A DNA stretch of 36,455 nucleotides from Methanosarcinales archaeon. Its GTDB lineage: Archaea; Halobacteriota; Methanosarcinia; Methanosarcinales; EX4572-44. This document shows, in pieces, positions 12,267 to 33,938 of the stretch (position 1 is its first letter; each line of letters starts with the position of its first letter). The notes beneath the pieces were generated by a model that ran no database searches, was not told the DNA's origin, and worked only from the letters and a program-made list of their open reading frames with translations. Location: NCBI GenBank assembly GCA_004212095.1, contig RXIJ01000040.1, forward strand, positions 1 to 36,455, in the 5' to 3' direction. The translations under genes and the position numbers were made by a program.

Positions 12267-13744
<1,478 letters not shown>

Positions 13745-13750
13745 AACGTA

Positions 13751-13778
13751 ATTGAACTGGATGCCGAAAAACTGCTAC
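13751..13778 (+). other. 3' arm of pre-16S processing stem (bulge-helix-bulge)
   Basis: AUUGAACUGGAU-GCCG-AAA-AACUGCUAC complementary to 12192-12219. Confidence 0.85.
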
Positions 13779-13831
13779 AACAATACTATTTATAGTGGTT
13801 CTCGTAGGGACTTTGCGAATCTACTTAAAAG

Positions 13832-13905
13832 GGGCTCGTAGATCAGATTGGAAGATCGCTGCCTTTGCAAGGCAGAGGCCCTGGGTTCAAGTCCCAGCGA
13901 GTCCA
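13832..13905 (+). tRNA. tRNA-Ala (anticodon TGC)
   Basis: Cloverleaf with CTGCC-TTTGCAA-GGCAG anticodon arm, G3-U70 wobble, no encoded CCA. Confidence 0.97.
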
Positions 13906-14013
13906 TTTGCCAGTGCACCTGTACAGTTGTATGATTGTATGGGGAAGGGCTGAAAATCAATCATTTTCCTCTTCTTTGAGGAAATGTGCGATTTTATGAT
14001 GCTATGTATATGT

Positions 14014-14044
14014 GTGATTCTTTGGACGCTTACTGGATGTAAGT
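14014..14044 (+). other. 5' arm of pre-23S processing stem
   Basis: GTGATTCTTTGGACGCTTACTGGATGTAAGT pairs with 17021-17051. Confidence 0.75.
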
Positions 14045-14071
14045 GAAATAATTGCTGTATCTGGTATAATT

Positions 14072-16995
<2,924 letters not shown>

Positions 16996-17020
16996 TATAT
17001 CCTTGCTACAGCTTTATGAA

Positions 17021-17051
17021 ACTTGCATCCAGGCGATATCCATTGAATCAC
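17021..17051 (+). other. 3' arm of pre-23S processing stem
   Basis: ACTTGCATCCAGGCGATATCCATTGAATCAC complementary to 14014-14044. Confidence 0.75.
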
Positions 17052-17082
17052 TAATATATATATAGCGTAACCTTTATTGATA

Positions 17083-17206
17083 TGGTATGGCGGCCATAGC
17101 GGTCTGGAAACTCCTGTACCCATCCCGAACACAGAAGATAAGCAGGTCCACGTTCTGTACTGTACTGAGGCGCGCGAGCCCTTGGAAACTATAGATCGCT
17201 GCCAGC
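17083..17206 (+). rRNA. 5S ribosomal RNA
   Basis: GGCGGCCATAGCGG...CCCATCCCGAACACAGAAGATAAGC...GCGCGAGCCC. Confidence 0.95.
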
Positions 17207-17288
17207 CAAATCAATTTCTTCTTTTGTTTGCATCATTGCAAAGTTTGAAGTAATATATCTAAATGTAATACGTAATGAGGTTCTTCCG

Positions 17289-30742: not shown

Positions 30743-31630
30743 ATGCAGAACGATGAGGTAATGGATCCACGAATAATCGATGGGCGAGGGATAGCTGCTA
30801 AAATCGAAGACCATGTTAAAAGAGAAGTTGAAAAACTTAAAGAAAAAGGCATCCAGCCAACTGTTGCAACCATACTTGTCGGAGAGCATCCACCTTCCAA
30901 GCTTTACGTCAAGCTGAAAGAGTGGGCATGCAAACGTGCAGGCATTCGATCAGAAGATCACAAGTGCAGTGAAGATGCGACGAAGGAGGAGATTATTAAC
31001 CTCATAGCTGAACTGAATAATCGAGTTGAGATAAACGGCATTCTGGTGGAGCTACCACTGCCGGAACATATCGATGAACATGAGGTAATGTCTGCAATCA
31101 AACCTTCAAAGGATGTGGATGGGTTTCATCCATTAAATATGGGAAGTATGTTGATAGGCAAGGAAGGGTTTGTGCCATGTACATCAGAAGGCATCATCCG
31201 TGCCCTGGAAGAATATCATATCGAGGTGCTCGGCAAAAACGTGGTGGTTGTGGGCCACAGCAATGTGGTGGGAAAACCCACATCAATCATGCTATTAAAT
31301 CGAAATGCTACTGTTGAAATATGTCATGTGTATACCCAAAATCTTAAGGAGCATACACTTCGAGCAGACATATTGATTGTAGCGACAGGTGTGAAAGGCC
31401 TGATAACAAAAGATATGGTAAAGAAAGGTGTTATCATCTTCGATGTAGGGGTCACATGGGTTGGTGAGAAAGTCTACGGGGATGTGAACTTTGATAGTGT
31501 CATCGAAAAAGTGAAACTGATATCCCCGGTTCCCGGTGGTGTTGGGCCGATGACTATTGCTATACTGATGGAGCACACAATAGAGGCTGCAAAACTCCAG
31601 CACAACTTACGGTCACGTACCCCGTTCTAA
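30743..31630 (+). CDS. folD: Methylenetetrahydrofolate dehydrogenase / methenyl-H4F cyclohydrolase
   Basis: KPSKDVDGFHPLNMG, VVVVGHSNVVGKPTSIMLL, SPVPGGVGPMTIAILMEHT. Confidence 0.97.
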   Translation: MQNDEVMDPRIIDGRGIAAKIEDHVKREVEKLKEKGIQPTVATILVGEHPPSKLYVKLKEWACKRAGIRSEDHKCSEDATKEEIINLIAELNNRVEINGILVELPLPEHIDEHEVMSAIKPSKDVDGFHPLNMGSMLIGKEGFVPCTSEGIIRALEEYHIEVLGKNVVVVGHSNVVGKPTSIMLLNRNATVEICHVYTQNLKEHTLRADILIVATGVKGLITKDMVKKGVIIFDVGVTWVGEKVYGDVNFDSVIEKVKLISPVPGGVGPMTIAILMEHTIEAAKLQHNLRSRTPF

Positions 31631-31700
31631 AAAGCGATGCATGAAGCTTCTACGTGATTAGGCGGCTTTGAAAAAGTATGGCAGAAGAAGAAAAGCAGAA

Positions 31701-31880
31701 GTTAGGAAAATGGATCACACCCTGGGATGCTGCTCAAGTCCCATGCTCTGTGGCTGATGGATTAAACAGAGGTGAGAGGGTAGCTTCGGTGTCCATCGGC
31801 GTAAAAACATTTCCTAACAGCGCCTATGAGCAGGAACGCTCTGGCAAGAGCGGACAGGACGTGCGAGTACCTGTCTCAAA
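31701..31880 (+). ncRNA. Putative omega RNA (HEARO-type) of the IscB locus
   Basis: Perfect stems: GTTAGGAAA(31701-31709)/TTTCCTAAC(31810-31818); TGGGA..TCCCA; GCTGATGGA(31753-31761)/TCCATCGGC(31792-31800); CGCTCT-GGCA-AGAGCG(31837-31852); GACAGG/CCTGTC(31853-31875). Confidence 0.65.
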
Positions 31881-33120
31881 CATGCGTGGTGAGCCTTTGA
31901 TGCCAACAACGGCAAGGAAAGCGAGGAAATTTCTGGAGCAAGGTAAAGCAAAAGTAGTGGGCTACAATCCATTCACAATACAGCTTTTGTATGGAACCGG
32001 GGAAACGAAACAAGAAATTGTGTTAGGTGTAGATGCTGGTTATGCGCATATTGGATACAGCGCAGTAACAGCGAAAGAAGAGTTAATATCGGGTGAACTG
32101 GAATTAAGAACTGATATAAAGCGTCTTTTAGATAAACGAAGAGCGTACCGAAGGACAAAGCGGAACAGATTATGGTATAGAAAACCGCGTTTTCTAAATC
32201 GTGGTAAGGAAGGATGGTTAGCACCATCGATAAAGCACAAATTAAAGAGTCACATAAAACTAATAGAGCGGTTAAACTCAATAATACCGATAACAAAGAT
32301 AGTAGTAGAAGTAGCGAGTTTTGACACGCAGAAGATGCAGAACCATGAGATAACTGGGATAGAATACCAGCAGGGTACGCTACAAGGCTATAACGTTAGA
32401 AACTATTTACTTGAAAAATGGAAGAGAAAATGCGCCTACTGCGGTCAGGCGAATGTGCCCTTGGAAGTAGAGCACATAATCCCAAAATCACGCGGTGGCA
32501 GTGACAGAGTGTCAAACTTAACTATCGCATGTCATAAGTGCAACGATGAGAAGGGAACACAAACAGCAGCAGAATTTGGACGTTTGGGAATACAAAATAA
32601 AGCAAAAAAACCTTTAAAATCCGCCGCGTTTATGAACATAATCAGGTGGAAAGTAGTAGACCATTTCAAGTGCAAATGGACGTACGGACATAAAACGAAA
32701 TACGGACGGATAAAAGCAGGTTTGGATAAGAGCCACATAAACGATGCATTCATTATCGCAGGAGGTAAAACGCAAAAACACACGGGAAAAAATATAATAG
32801 AGAAACAAGTCAGGCGACAGAACAGAAGCTTATATAAGGCAAATATACAAAAAGGCGGTATGTTAAAGCGGAATACGGTAAAAGAAGTAAAAGAGTTCAG
32901 GAGGTTTGATAAAGTGGAGTACAAAAACAAAGAATTCTTTATTTTTGGATTGAGAAGCAGTGGATATTTCAATCTAAAGAATATCGAAGGCGAAAAGGTA
33001 ACAGATTCCGTAAGCCTTAAAAAATTAACATTTATAGAGCGAGCAAGAGGAAAAATAGCAGAGGTGAGAAGGGCAATTCCTCCATGTGCTGAAGCACATA
33101 GTCTCCTTGCCAGTGGTTGA
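31861..33120 (+). CDS. iscB: IscB RNA-guided endonuclease (RuvC + HNH)
   Basis: PLMP motif GEPLMPTTARKARKFLEQGKAKVV; RuvC-I LGVDAGYAHIGYSAV; RRAYRRTKRNRLWYRKPRFLNR; RuvC-II KIVVEVASFDTQKMQN; HNH CAYCG...VEHIIPKSRGGSDRVSNLTIACHKCN; RuvC-III SHINDAFIIAGG. ORF call starts 31678; GTG 31861 or ATG 31882 likelier. Confidence 0.95.
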   Translation: MRVPVSNMRGEPLMPTTARKARKFLEQGKAKVVGYNPFTIQLLYGTGETKQEIVLGVDAGYAHIGYSAVTAKEELISGELELRTDIKRLLDKRRAYRRTKRNRLWYRKPRFLNRGKEGWLAPSIKHKLKSHIKLIERLNSIIPITKIVVEVASFDTQKMQNHEITGIEYQQGTLQGYNVRNYLLEKWKRKCAYCGQANVPLEVEHIIPKSRGGSDRVSNLTIACHKCNDEKGTQTAAEFGRLGIQNKAKKPLKSAAFMNIIRWKVVDHFKCKWTYGHKTKYGRIKAGLDKSHINDAFIIAGGKTQKHTGKNIIEKQVRRQNRSLYKANIQKGGMLKRNTVKEVKEFRRFDKVEYKNKEFFIFGLRSSGYFNLKNIEGEKVTDSVSLKKLTFIERARGKIAEVRRAIPPCAEAHSLLASG

Positions 33121-33938
33121 TGACTGATGTAAACATTTCCGGTTTGAACGTTGGAGATAAACATCCTGTCAGGATTATGGGTGTAATCAACCTCAGTGTA
33201 GAATCCTTTTACAAGCAATCAGTTGTTAAACCCGATCTTCTTATTCAAACGGTTCAGCAGATGATACAGGATGGTGCTGAAATAATAGATATCGGGGGAA
33301 GGTCCACATGGCCACCTGCTCCACAGATCACTGTATCAAGTGAATATCGTCGAGTCATCCCGGCAATTGAAAAAATACGAGAAGTAACGGAAATTCCAGT
33401 ATCCATTGATACCATGTACTCACAGATTGCAAGAGATGCACTTAATCTTGGTGCAGATCTGATAAACGACGTGAGCGGCTTTACCGGTGACAGTAATATG
33501 AGCCGGGTTACAGCAGAATATGATTGCCCGGTCATGCTAATGGCAAGCAGAAACAAGCCAGGAGACGTGGTCGGTGTTGCTGACACTCTTGACGCACTCT
33601 CAAAGATTATCCGGAATGCAGAAGAAAATGGAGTCGGGAGCGATCGCATCATCCTTGATCCGGCAATCGGACGCTGGTGTGAGATGCGAACCACCGAACA
33701 TGATCTTGAAATTATCAAGAATTTTAAACGCTTCACGGTCTTTCAAAAGCCTTTGCTTGCTGCACTCTCAAGGAAATCTTTCGTAGGTGATGTGCTTGGA
33801 AAAGCACCGGGGGAACGCCTATATGGAAGCATTGCCGCAACTGCAATTGCGGTATGCGCGGGAGCTAATGTCATCAGAACGCATGATGTGGCAGCAACGG
33901 TTGATGCTGTACGCATGGCAGAGAAATTATGCAAGTAA
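33120..33938 (+). CDS. folP: Dihydropteroate synthase family protein
   Basis: VRIMGVINLSVESFYK, DIGGRST, SIDTMYSQIARDALNLGADLINDVSGF, LAALSRKSFVGDVLG; ATG overlaps the iscB stop. Confidence 0.92.
   Translation: MTDVNISGLNVGDKHPVRIMGVINLSVESFYKQSVVKPDLLIQTVQQMIQDGAEIIDIGGRSTWPPAPQITVSSEYRRVIPAIEKIREVTEIPVSIDTMYSQIARDALNLGADLINDVSGFTGDSNMSRVTAEYDCPVMLMASRNKPGDVVGVADTLDALSKIIRNAEENGVGSDRIILDPAIGRWCEMRTTEHDLEIIKNFKRFTVFQKPLLAALSRKSFVGDVLGKAPGERLYGSIAATAIAVCAGANVIRTHDVAATVDAVRMAEKLCK

What the first reader, a model, noticed from the sequence alone, without database searches (positions are those of the whole stretch)
31631..31880. N-terminal 'coding' extension of the IscB ORF looks like an omega/HEARO RNA
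The ORF caller starts iscB at 31678, but IscB homology (the PLMP motif) begins only around 31861-31882. The intervening DNA holds a set of nested and serial perfect stems: a 9-bp closing stem 31701-31709/31810-31818 enclosing two hairpins, then CGCTCT-GGCA-AGAGCG and GACAGG-N11-CCTGTC running up to the IscB start. IscB omega RNAs (formerly HEARO RNAs) lie directly upstream of iscB with the guide at the RNA 5' end. Here the scaffold would start near 31700, placing the guide in ~31680-31700 (GCAGAAGAAGAAAAGCAGAA), and its 3' end would overlap the ORF 5' end. The exact guide boundary cannot be fixed by eye.
Basis: partly seen in the sequence, partly recalled or inferred. Interest (0 to 1): 0.85.

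Follow-up and report, generated by a model that had tools for sequence, protein, structure and literature searches.

The report
IscB gene overlapping its guide RNA
A small mobile element in an archaeal folate operon carries a Cas9-ancestor nuclease (IscB) with a genuine guide-RNA scaffold; the aiming part of that RNA is the tail of the host gene folD, and related sequences show that the nuclease gene's reading frame is kept open right through the guide RNA, so one stretch probably serves as both guide RNA and coding sequence.

Summary
The stems are real and belong to an IscB omega RNA. Rfam HEARO (RF02033) matches 31612-31837 at 101.9 bits (cut-off 83). Covariation over 17 homologs supports the fold, the nexus pseudoknot and both 3' hairpins.

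Two same-genus genomes hold the empty site: the element is 31612-33119 (1508 bp, no target duplication). The RNA starts at 31612, so the guide is about 31596-31611 (TCCAGCACAACTTACG, folD 3' end), not 31680-31700. The target-adjacent motif is ATGA, here the folD-stop/folP-start overlap.

The N-terminal extension is not simply spurious. It shows no amino-acid constraint (flat codon positions; predicted disordered). Yet across a deep IscB clade the IscB frame through the RNA stays stop-free, its length stays a multiple of three (23/24 against 7/26 outside), and an in-frame ATG follows a Shine-Dalgarno-like nexus strand; six members lack a start codon at the conventional position. Best reading: in this clade iscB translation starts inside the omega RNA, so scaffold and coding sequence are the same RNA. 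That folding or IscB binding hides the ribosome site is inferred. Cleavage and translation are untested. New variant of a known kind.

The parts
31612..33119 (+). Mobile element (1508 bp): omega RNA, iscB, right-end hairpin
   Evidence: Empty site in L059 and L060; left homology ends 31611, right resumes 33120, one ambiguous base, no target duplication
31596..31611 (+). Guide, TCCAGCACAACTTACG, taken from the folD 3' end (16 nt as in OgeuIscB; true length unknown)
   Evidence: Flank directly 5' of HEARO model position 1; matches the empty site next to ATGA; guide length from PMC9640706
31612..31875 (+). Omega RNA scaffold (Rfam HEARO 31612-31837 plus two terminal hairpins)
31612..31658 (+). 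Guide adaptor hairpin, also the element's left end; closing stem 31612-31619/31651-31658
   Evidence: 96% of cells paired, 3 pairs with changes on both sides
31660..31665 (+). Nexus stem 5' strand (AGGCGG; AGGAGG in most relatives), pairs with 31821-31824; candidate ribosome-binding site
   Evidence: Covariation; position before in-frame ATG; 16S 3' end CCTCCT
31678..31680 (+). ATG inside the omega RNA, probable iscB start
   Evidence: In frame with IscB; in-frame ATGs at this place in relatives
31678..31860 (+). Double-use stretch: scaffold RNA and 61-codon N-terminal extension of iscB
   Evidence: Stop avoidance, multiple-of-three lengths, flat codon positions, extension predicted disordered, pLDDT 30-37 for residues 1-60
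31701..31818 (+). Central stem 31701-31712/31808-31818 enclosing the nexus pseudoknot hairpin 31721-31728/31738-31745 and hairpin 31753-31762/31791-31800
31730..31833 (+). Nexus pseudoknot: 31730-31736 with 31827-31833
   Evidence: Five core pairs 95% paired, four with compensatory changes
31837..31852 (+). Terminal hairpin 1
   Evidence: Covariation:
31853..31875 (+). Terminal hairpin 2; its loop holds the conventional iscB start GTG 31861-31863
   Evidence: 90% of cells paired, 5 of 6 pairs with changes on both sides
31861..33117 (+). IscB core (PLMP, RuvC, HNH, C-terminal domain), stop TGA 33118-33120
33075..33110 (+). Right-end motif AATTCC-hairpin-GTCTCCTTGC (hairpin 33084-33089/33094-33099)
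   Evidence: Shared with other copies
33120..33123 (+). Target-adjacent motif ATGA; also the folP start codon
   Evidence: Empty site; ATGA follows 19 of 21 right ends
30743..31630 (+). folD; last five codons SRTPF and the stop come from the element
33120..33938 (+). folP (dihydropteroate synthase), start ATG 33120

Best explanation
A non-autonomous IS200/IS605-type element sits exactly at the ATGA stop/start overlap of folD and folP. RNA read from the folD side carries a guide copied from the folD 3' end, followed by an omega RNA scaffold. IscB with this RNA should cut the empty allele (guide match next to ATGA), which re-forms when the element leaves, so that repair copies the element back. 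In this IscB clade the iscB frame begins inside the omega RNA, at an ATG just after the nexus 5' strand, which doubles as a ribosome site. The same RNA is either translated, giving IscB a sequence-tolerant N-terminal extension of about 60 residues, or folded and bound by IscB as guide. Shown: RNA family and fold, element ends, guide and TAM by empty site, conservation of the frame. Inferred: cutting, homing, translation from the inner ATG, the either/or switch.
For: HEARO match and covariation with pseudoknot. Empty sites fix ends, guide and TAM; ATGA after 19 of 21 right ends; ATGA is cut by the related IsrB (PMC9581776). Intact IscB motifs aligned to OgeuIscB. Frame: 7 stops in 18 homologs against 22.3 +/- 3.5 permuted, the other frames as permuted; stop-free 23/24 against 2/26 and length a multiple of three 23/24 against 7/26; in-frame ATG behind AGGAGG-like nexus strand; six members without a start codon at the conventional place; trait clustered on a deep IscB tree, 3 changes against 12.3 shuffled.
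Against: No amino-acid constraint in the extension, which is also predicted disordered. One lineage (L037, L044, L047) has lost the in-phase frame and has its own SD and start; L111 has a stop just before the conventional start. In the window the ribosome-site-like strand is weaker (AGGCGG) and 12 nt from the ATG. Clade membership was drawn with a profile built mostly from the same sequences, and a decayed copy and iscB-less copies were set apart. No RNA, protein or cleavage data.
Confidence: 0.75

Rival explanations
1. Conventional arrangement: the omega RNA is a 5' untranslated region, IscB starts at GTG 31861, and the open frame upstream is an accident of gene calling kept by RNA conservation.
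For: Codon positions evolve equally in the extension; published IscBs are described with a 5' UTR RNA (PMC9755519) and extensions are trimmed by curators (PMC13180657); most clade members do have TTG or GTG at the inner place.
Against: Stop avoidance in that frame only, multiple-of-three lengths, in-frame ATG with SD-like strand, members without the inner start codon.
Confidence: 0.2
2. The frame is translated, but as a leader that couples translation to iscB rather than as part of the active enzyme: ribosomes run through the RNA and restart at the inner codon.
For: In L037/L044/L047 the frame is open in RNA phase but one base out of phase with IscB, which there has its own SD and start; no amino-acid constraint.
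Against: In six members no NTG codon exists at the inner place, so a fused product is the simplest reading.
Confidence: 0.25
3. One reading: scaffold from about 31700 with the guide at 31680-31700.
Against: HEARO model position 1 is at 31612, the guide adaptor hairpin 31612-31658 covaries, and the flank-to-element border is at 31611/31612.
Confidence: 0.01
4. The extension is a protein domain and the stems are chance or coding constraint.
For: 61 codons open in phase with IscB.
Against: Compensatory changes in nearly all helices, HEARO match over cut-off, flat codon positions.
Confidence: 0.01

Closest known systems
OgeuIscB-omega RNA (PDB 7xht; PMC9640706)
   Same: PLMP, RuvC and HNH protein; guide 5' of a guide adaptor hairpin, nexus stem, central stem, nexus pseudoknot, two terminal hairpins; motif 3' of the target
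   Different: ATGA instead of NNRR motif; iscB frame runs through the scaffold; terminal hairpin 2 overlaps the conventional start codon
Rfam HEARO RNA, RF02033
   Same: Full-length match over the gathering score
   Different: Extended by two covarying 3' hairpins beyond the Rfam model, and carries a conserved open frame in this clade
DtIsrB nickase-omega RNA (PMC9581776)
   Same: Cuts next to ATGA or TTGA
   Different: IsrB lacks the HNH domain, which is present here
TnpB and its omega RNA in IS200/IS605 elements
   Same: Guide taken from flanking DNA; guide RNA at one end of the nuclease gene (PMC12558985); elements with tnpB and the same right end and ATGA flank exist in genus-mate G002
   Different: TnpB RNAs lie at the 3' end of the gene (that they overlap the coding sequence is my own knowledge); here the overlap is with the 5' end

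Membership tests
IscB | PLMP domain, split RuvC, bridge helix (RRXRR) and HNH | tested here: met
   NF040563 381.9 bits against cut-off 175; RRXRR and HNH over cut-off
IscB | Catalytic RuvC and HNH residues | tested here: met
   VDAG, VEVASFD, EHIIP and SHINDAF align with OgeuIscB IDPG, LELNRF, HHVVP and DHYLDAY
IscB | RNA-guided DNA cleavage | not testable with these tools
   Needs biochemistry
HEARO / IscB omega RNA | Match to the HEARO covariance model over the gathering score | tested here: met
   101.9 bits against 83, model positions 1-211
HEARO / IscB omega RNA | Nexus pseudoknot and terminal hairpins as in OgeuIscB | tested here: met
   Pseudoknot 95% paired and covarying; terminal hairpins covary
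HEARO / IscB omega RNA | Guide = DNA flanking the left end, target with TAM = empty site | tested here: met
   Empty sites in L059 and L060
HEARO / IscB omega RNA | RNA lies in an untranslated 5' region | tested here: inconclusive
   Frame through the RNA is selected to stay open in this clade; translation itself not observed
IS200/IS605 element | No target duplication, subterminal hairpins, fixed target motif at one end | tested here: met
IS200/IS605 element | Encodes its own Y1 transposase TnpA | tested here: not met
   Only iscB lies within 31612-33119; one full Y1 gene and three partial ones are elsewhere in the genome, so at most a non-autonomous element

The most novel reading that the evidence does not exclude
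In a large IscB clade spanning archaea and several bacterial MAGs, the guide-RNA scaffold is also the 5' coding region of the nuclease: the ribosome site lies in the nexus stem, so IscB binding to its omega RNA shuts off its own synthesis. Its ATGA motif also steers insertion to gene starts and stop/start overlaps, where operon genes stay intact and the guide is transcribed.
Probability: 0.4. Interest if true: 0.78.

Novelty: new variant of a known kind. Interest (0 to 1): 0.6.

Why it matters
IscB is the likely ancestor of Cas9, and its guide RNA is treated as a 5' untranslated RNA; published curation removes N-terminal extensions such as this one (PMC13180657). If the frame is translated, proteins and RNAs of this clade have been cut at the wrong place. 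One RNA would then have to choose between being message and being guide, a built-in feedback control that simple reporter constructs can test. The natural empty site also gives an exact guide and TAM, so the enzyme can be tested in vitro directly.

Tried and rejected
Free energy alone did not separate the whole RNA from shuffles, so covariation was used. A regular-expression scan for the frame in other loci was too strict and was replaced by an nhmmer profile. A covariance model of the full scaffold was not built (about 280 positions, likely over the time limit). A second empty site was sought for the C106 copy, but its left flank is a dispersed repeat. The AlphaFold model came from a shallow alignment of 14 rows and is of moderate quality (mean pLDDT 68, pTM 0.41), so it was used only to see that residues 1-60 are disordered; no fold search was made, as sequence already places the protein. 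Considered and rejected: protein-only reading of the extension; guide at 31680-31700; a false assembly join (both flanks align to two relatives at about 95%). Altae-Tran 2021 and Kapitonov 2016 are not held and Weinberg 2009 was not found, so the novelty of the overlap rests on the papers that could be read.

Full report
1. The observation. Rfam RF02033 (HEARO) matches 31612-31837 on the + strand over its whole length at 101.9 bits (gathering score 83). The ORF 31678-33120 is IscB: NF040563 at 381.9 bits, RRXRR and HNH domains; the motifs VDAG, VEVASFD, EHIIP and SHINDAF align to OgeuIscB. Homology begins at residues 64-66, that is near GTG 31861.

2. Is the fold real? Seventeen homologous regions were aligned without regard to structure, and the fold (Rfam pairs, the two 3' hairpins and a pseudoknot) was counted on them. 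84.4% of cells are standard pairs against 68.5% after shuffling and at most 42% after sliding. The covariation score is 0.459 against 0.178 +/- 0.009, and 55 of 80 pairs change on both sides. The pseudoknot 31730-31736/31827-31833 is 95% paired in its five core pairs and the last hairpin 90%, both with compensatory changes. By position these are the nexus pseudoknot and terminal hairpins 1 and 2 of the OgeuIscB omega RNA (PMC9640706). Folding energy alone would not have shown this for the whole RNA, though it does for the two terminal hairpins.

3. Where the RNA begins, and the guide. Two genomes of the same genus (FolD 93-95% identical) lack the element. They read ...CTCCAGCAYAACTTACG|ATGACTGATG..., and the window matches up to 31611 and again from 33120, with one ambiguous base. 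The element is therefore 31612-33119, without target duplication, and begins exactly at HEARO model position 1. Nearly all other copies in this and related genomes begin GTCA, with different 5' flanks. In the empty allele the guide match is followed by ATGA: perfect in G001 (L060), with one silent change nine bases from the TAM in G003 (L059). ATGA follows 19 of the 21 right ends found by pattern; one of the other two runs into undetermined bases. ATGA is cut by the related IsrB (PMC9581776). The own genome, 79% complete, holds no intact guide+ATGA target.

4. Place of insertion. In the empty allele ATGA is the overlap of the folD stop (TGA) and the folP start (ATG). The element splits them: folD gains SRTPF and a stop, folP keeps its ATG, and the iscB stop TGA 33118-33120 overlaps that ATG. 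The same stop/start overlap is occupied in L037, L044 and L054. In 13 of 17 assessable insertions the ATG of the TAM opens a frame of at least 77 codons, against 16% of ATGA sites in the window (P 5e-8). Survival of harmless insertions may explain this as well as targeting does.

5. The N-terminal extension. There is none: mismatches by codon position are flat in the extension (0.40/0.39/0.40) and typical of protein in the core (0.34/0.24/0.61). Six independent sister pairs show the same, and AlphaFold gives residues 1-60 pLDDT 30-37 with no secondary structure. Yet the frame is kept. Over 58 codons upstream of IscB, 18 homologs hold 7 stops against 22.3 +/- 3.5 when columns are permuted (0 of 500 as low), while the other two frames behave as permuted. 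With a profile over about 60 distinct RNAs, the frame from the conserved ACACC to terminal hairpin 1 is stop-free in 23 of 24 clade members and 2 of 26 others, and its length is a multiple of three (111 to 123 nt) in 23 of 24 and 7 of 26. The exception, L017, reaches IscB through an ATG in another phase. A longer RNA in L045 (302 nt) is still open over 104 codons. Set apart were a decayed copy (C117) and the iscB-less copies, two of which have stops in the frame. The clade was drawn by score to a profile built mostly from these same sequences, so the tree in the next paragraph, made from the IscB core alone, is the independent check.

6. A start site inside the RNA. Nearly all these members have an in-frame ATG about 5-15 nt after AGGAGG or a close variant, which is the 5' strand of the nexus stem; two have AAGGAGGTGAC-ATG. 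Copies that lost the usual ATG (the window, L012, L013, L015) have another in frame a few codons upstream. The 16S rRNA in the window ends GGATCACCTCCT. Six members have CCG, TCG or ACG where the conventional start would be. On the tree of the IscB core the trait needs 3 changes, shuffled mean 12.3. I conclude that in this clade the frame is translated, most likely from inside the omega RNA. Because the same strand pairs in the nexus stem, folding would hide the ribosome site; a HEARO RNA without its protein is flexible (PMC12286853), so IscB binding could act as the switch. That last step is inference.

7. How it works. Such elements are moved by a Y1 transposase (general knowledge of the IS200/IS605 family). 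None is encoded here, but one full Y1 gene and partial ones lie elsewhere in the genome. Excision would re-form the guide target next to ATGA, which IscB should cut so that repair restores the element, as described for TnpB (PMC11870625). Because the guide lies in folD, the RNA must come from transcription entering from the folD side.

8. Host. The relatives are unnamed, but a closed 1.92 Mb genome of a sister genus fits the ethane-oxidising Argoarchaeum/Ethanoperedens group (PMC7175092). This is inference from genome size and kinship only.

9. Novelty. IscB, HEARO RNA and ATGA-type motifs are known. I found no report of the omega RNA lying within the iscB frame; one large screen states that such N-terminal extensions were trimmed when a downstream start was available (PMC13180657). 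Several founding papers could not be read here.

Noticed in passing
L036, L043, L046, L051, L054 (genome G002, same genus): Omega-RNA-only elements without iscB; four measured ones are about 271-347 bp, with the same ends and, where readable, the ATGA flank. They may be served by IscB in trans.
   Followed up: partly
L163 (G002:C79): An element with the same right end and ATGA flank carries a 422-aa TnpB-like ORF on the opposite strand; L161, L164 and L168 have similar internal sequence. IscB and TnpB elements appear to share ends and motif.
   Followed up: partly
window 33118-33122; L037, L044, L054: Insertions of this family sit at start codons and stop/start overlaps (ATGA); in the window the iscB stop codon borrows its last base from the flank and overlaps the folP start.
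   Followed up: partly
L004:1396-1482 (G000:C106): A dispersed repeat of roughly 80 bp occurs in tens of places in each of the four genomes of this genus.
   Followed up: no
G000:C117:7919-8876 and G000:C35:11959-12195: Own genome also holds a decayed iscB copy with a degraded HEARO RNA and a HEARO RNA without iscB; a second intact iscB lies at C106.
   Followed up: partly
window 12267-17207: Archaeal rRNA operon: 16S, tRNA, 23S, 5S.
   Followed up: no
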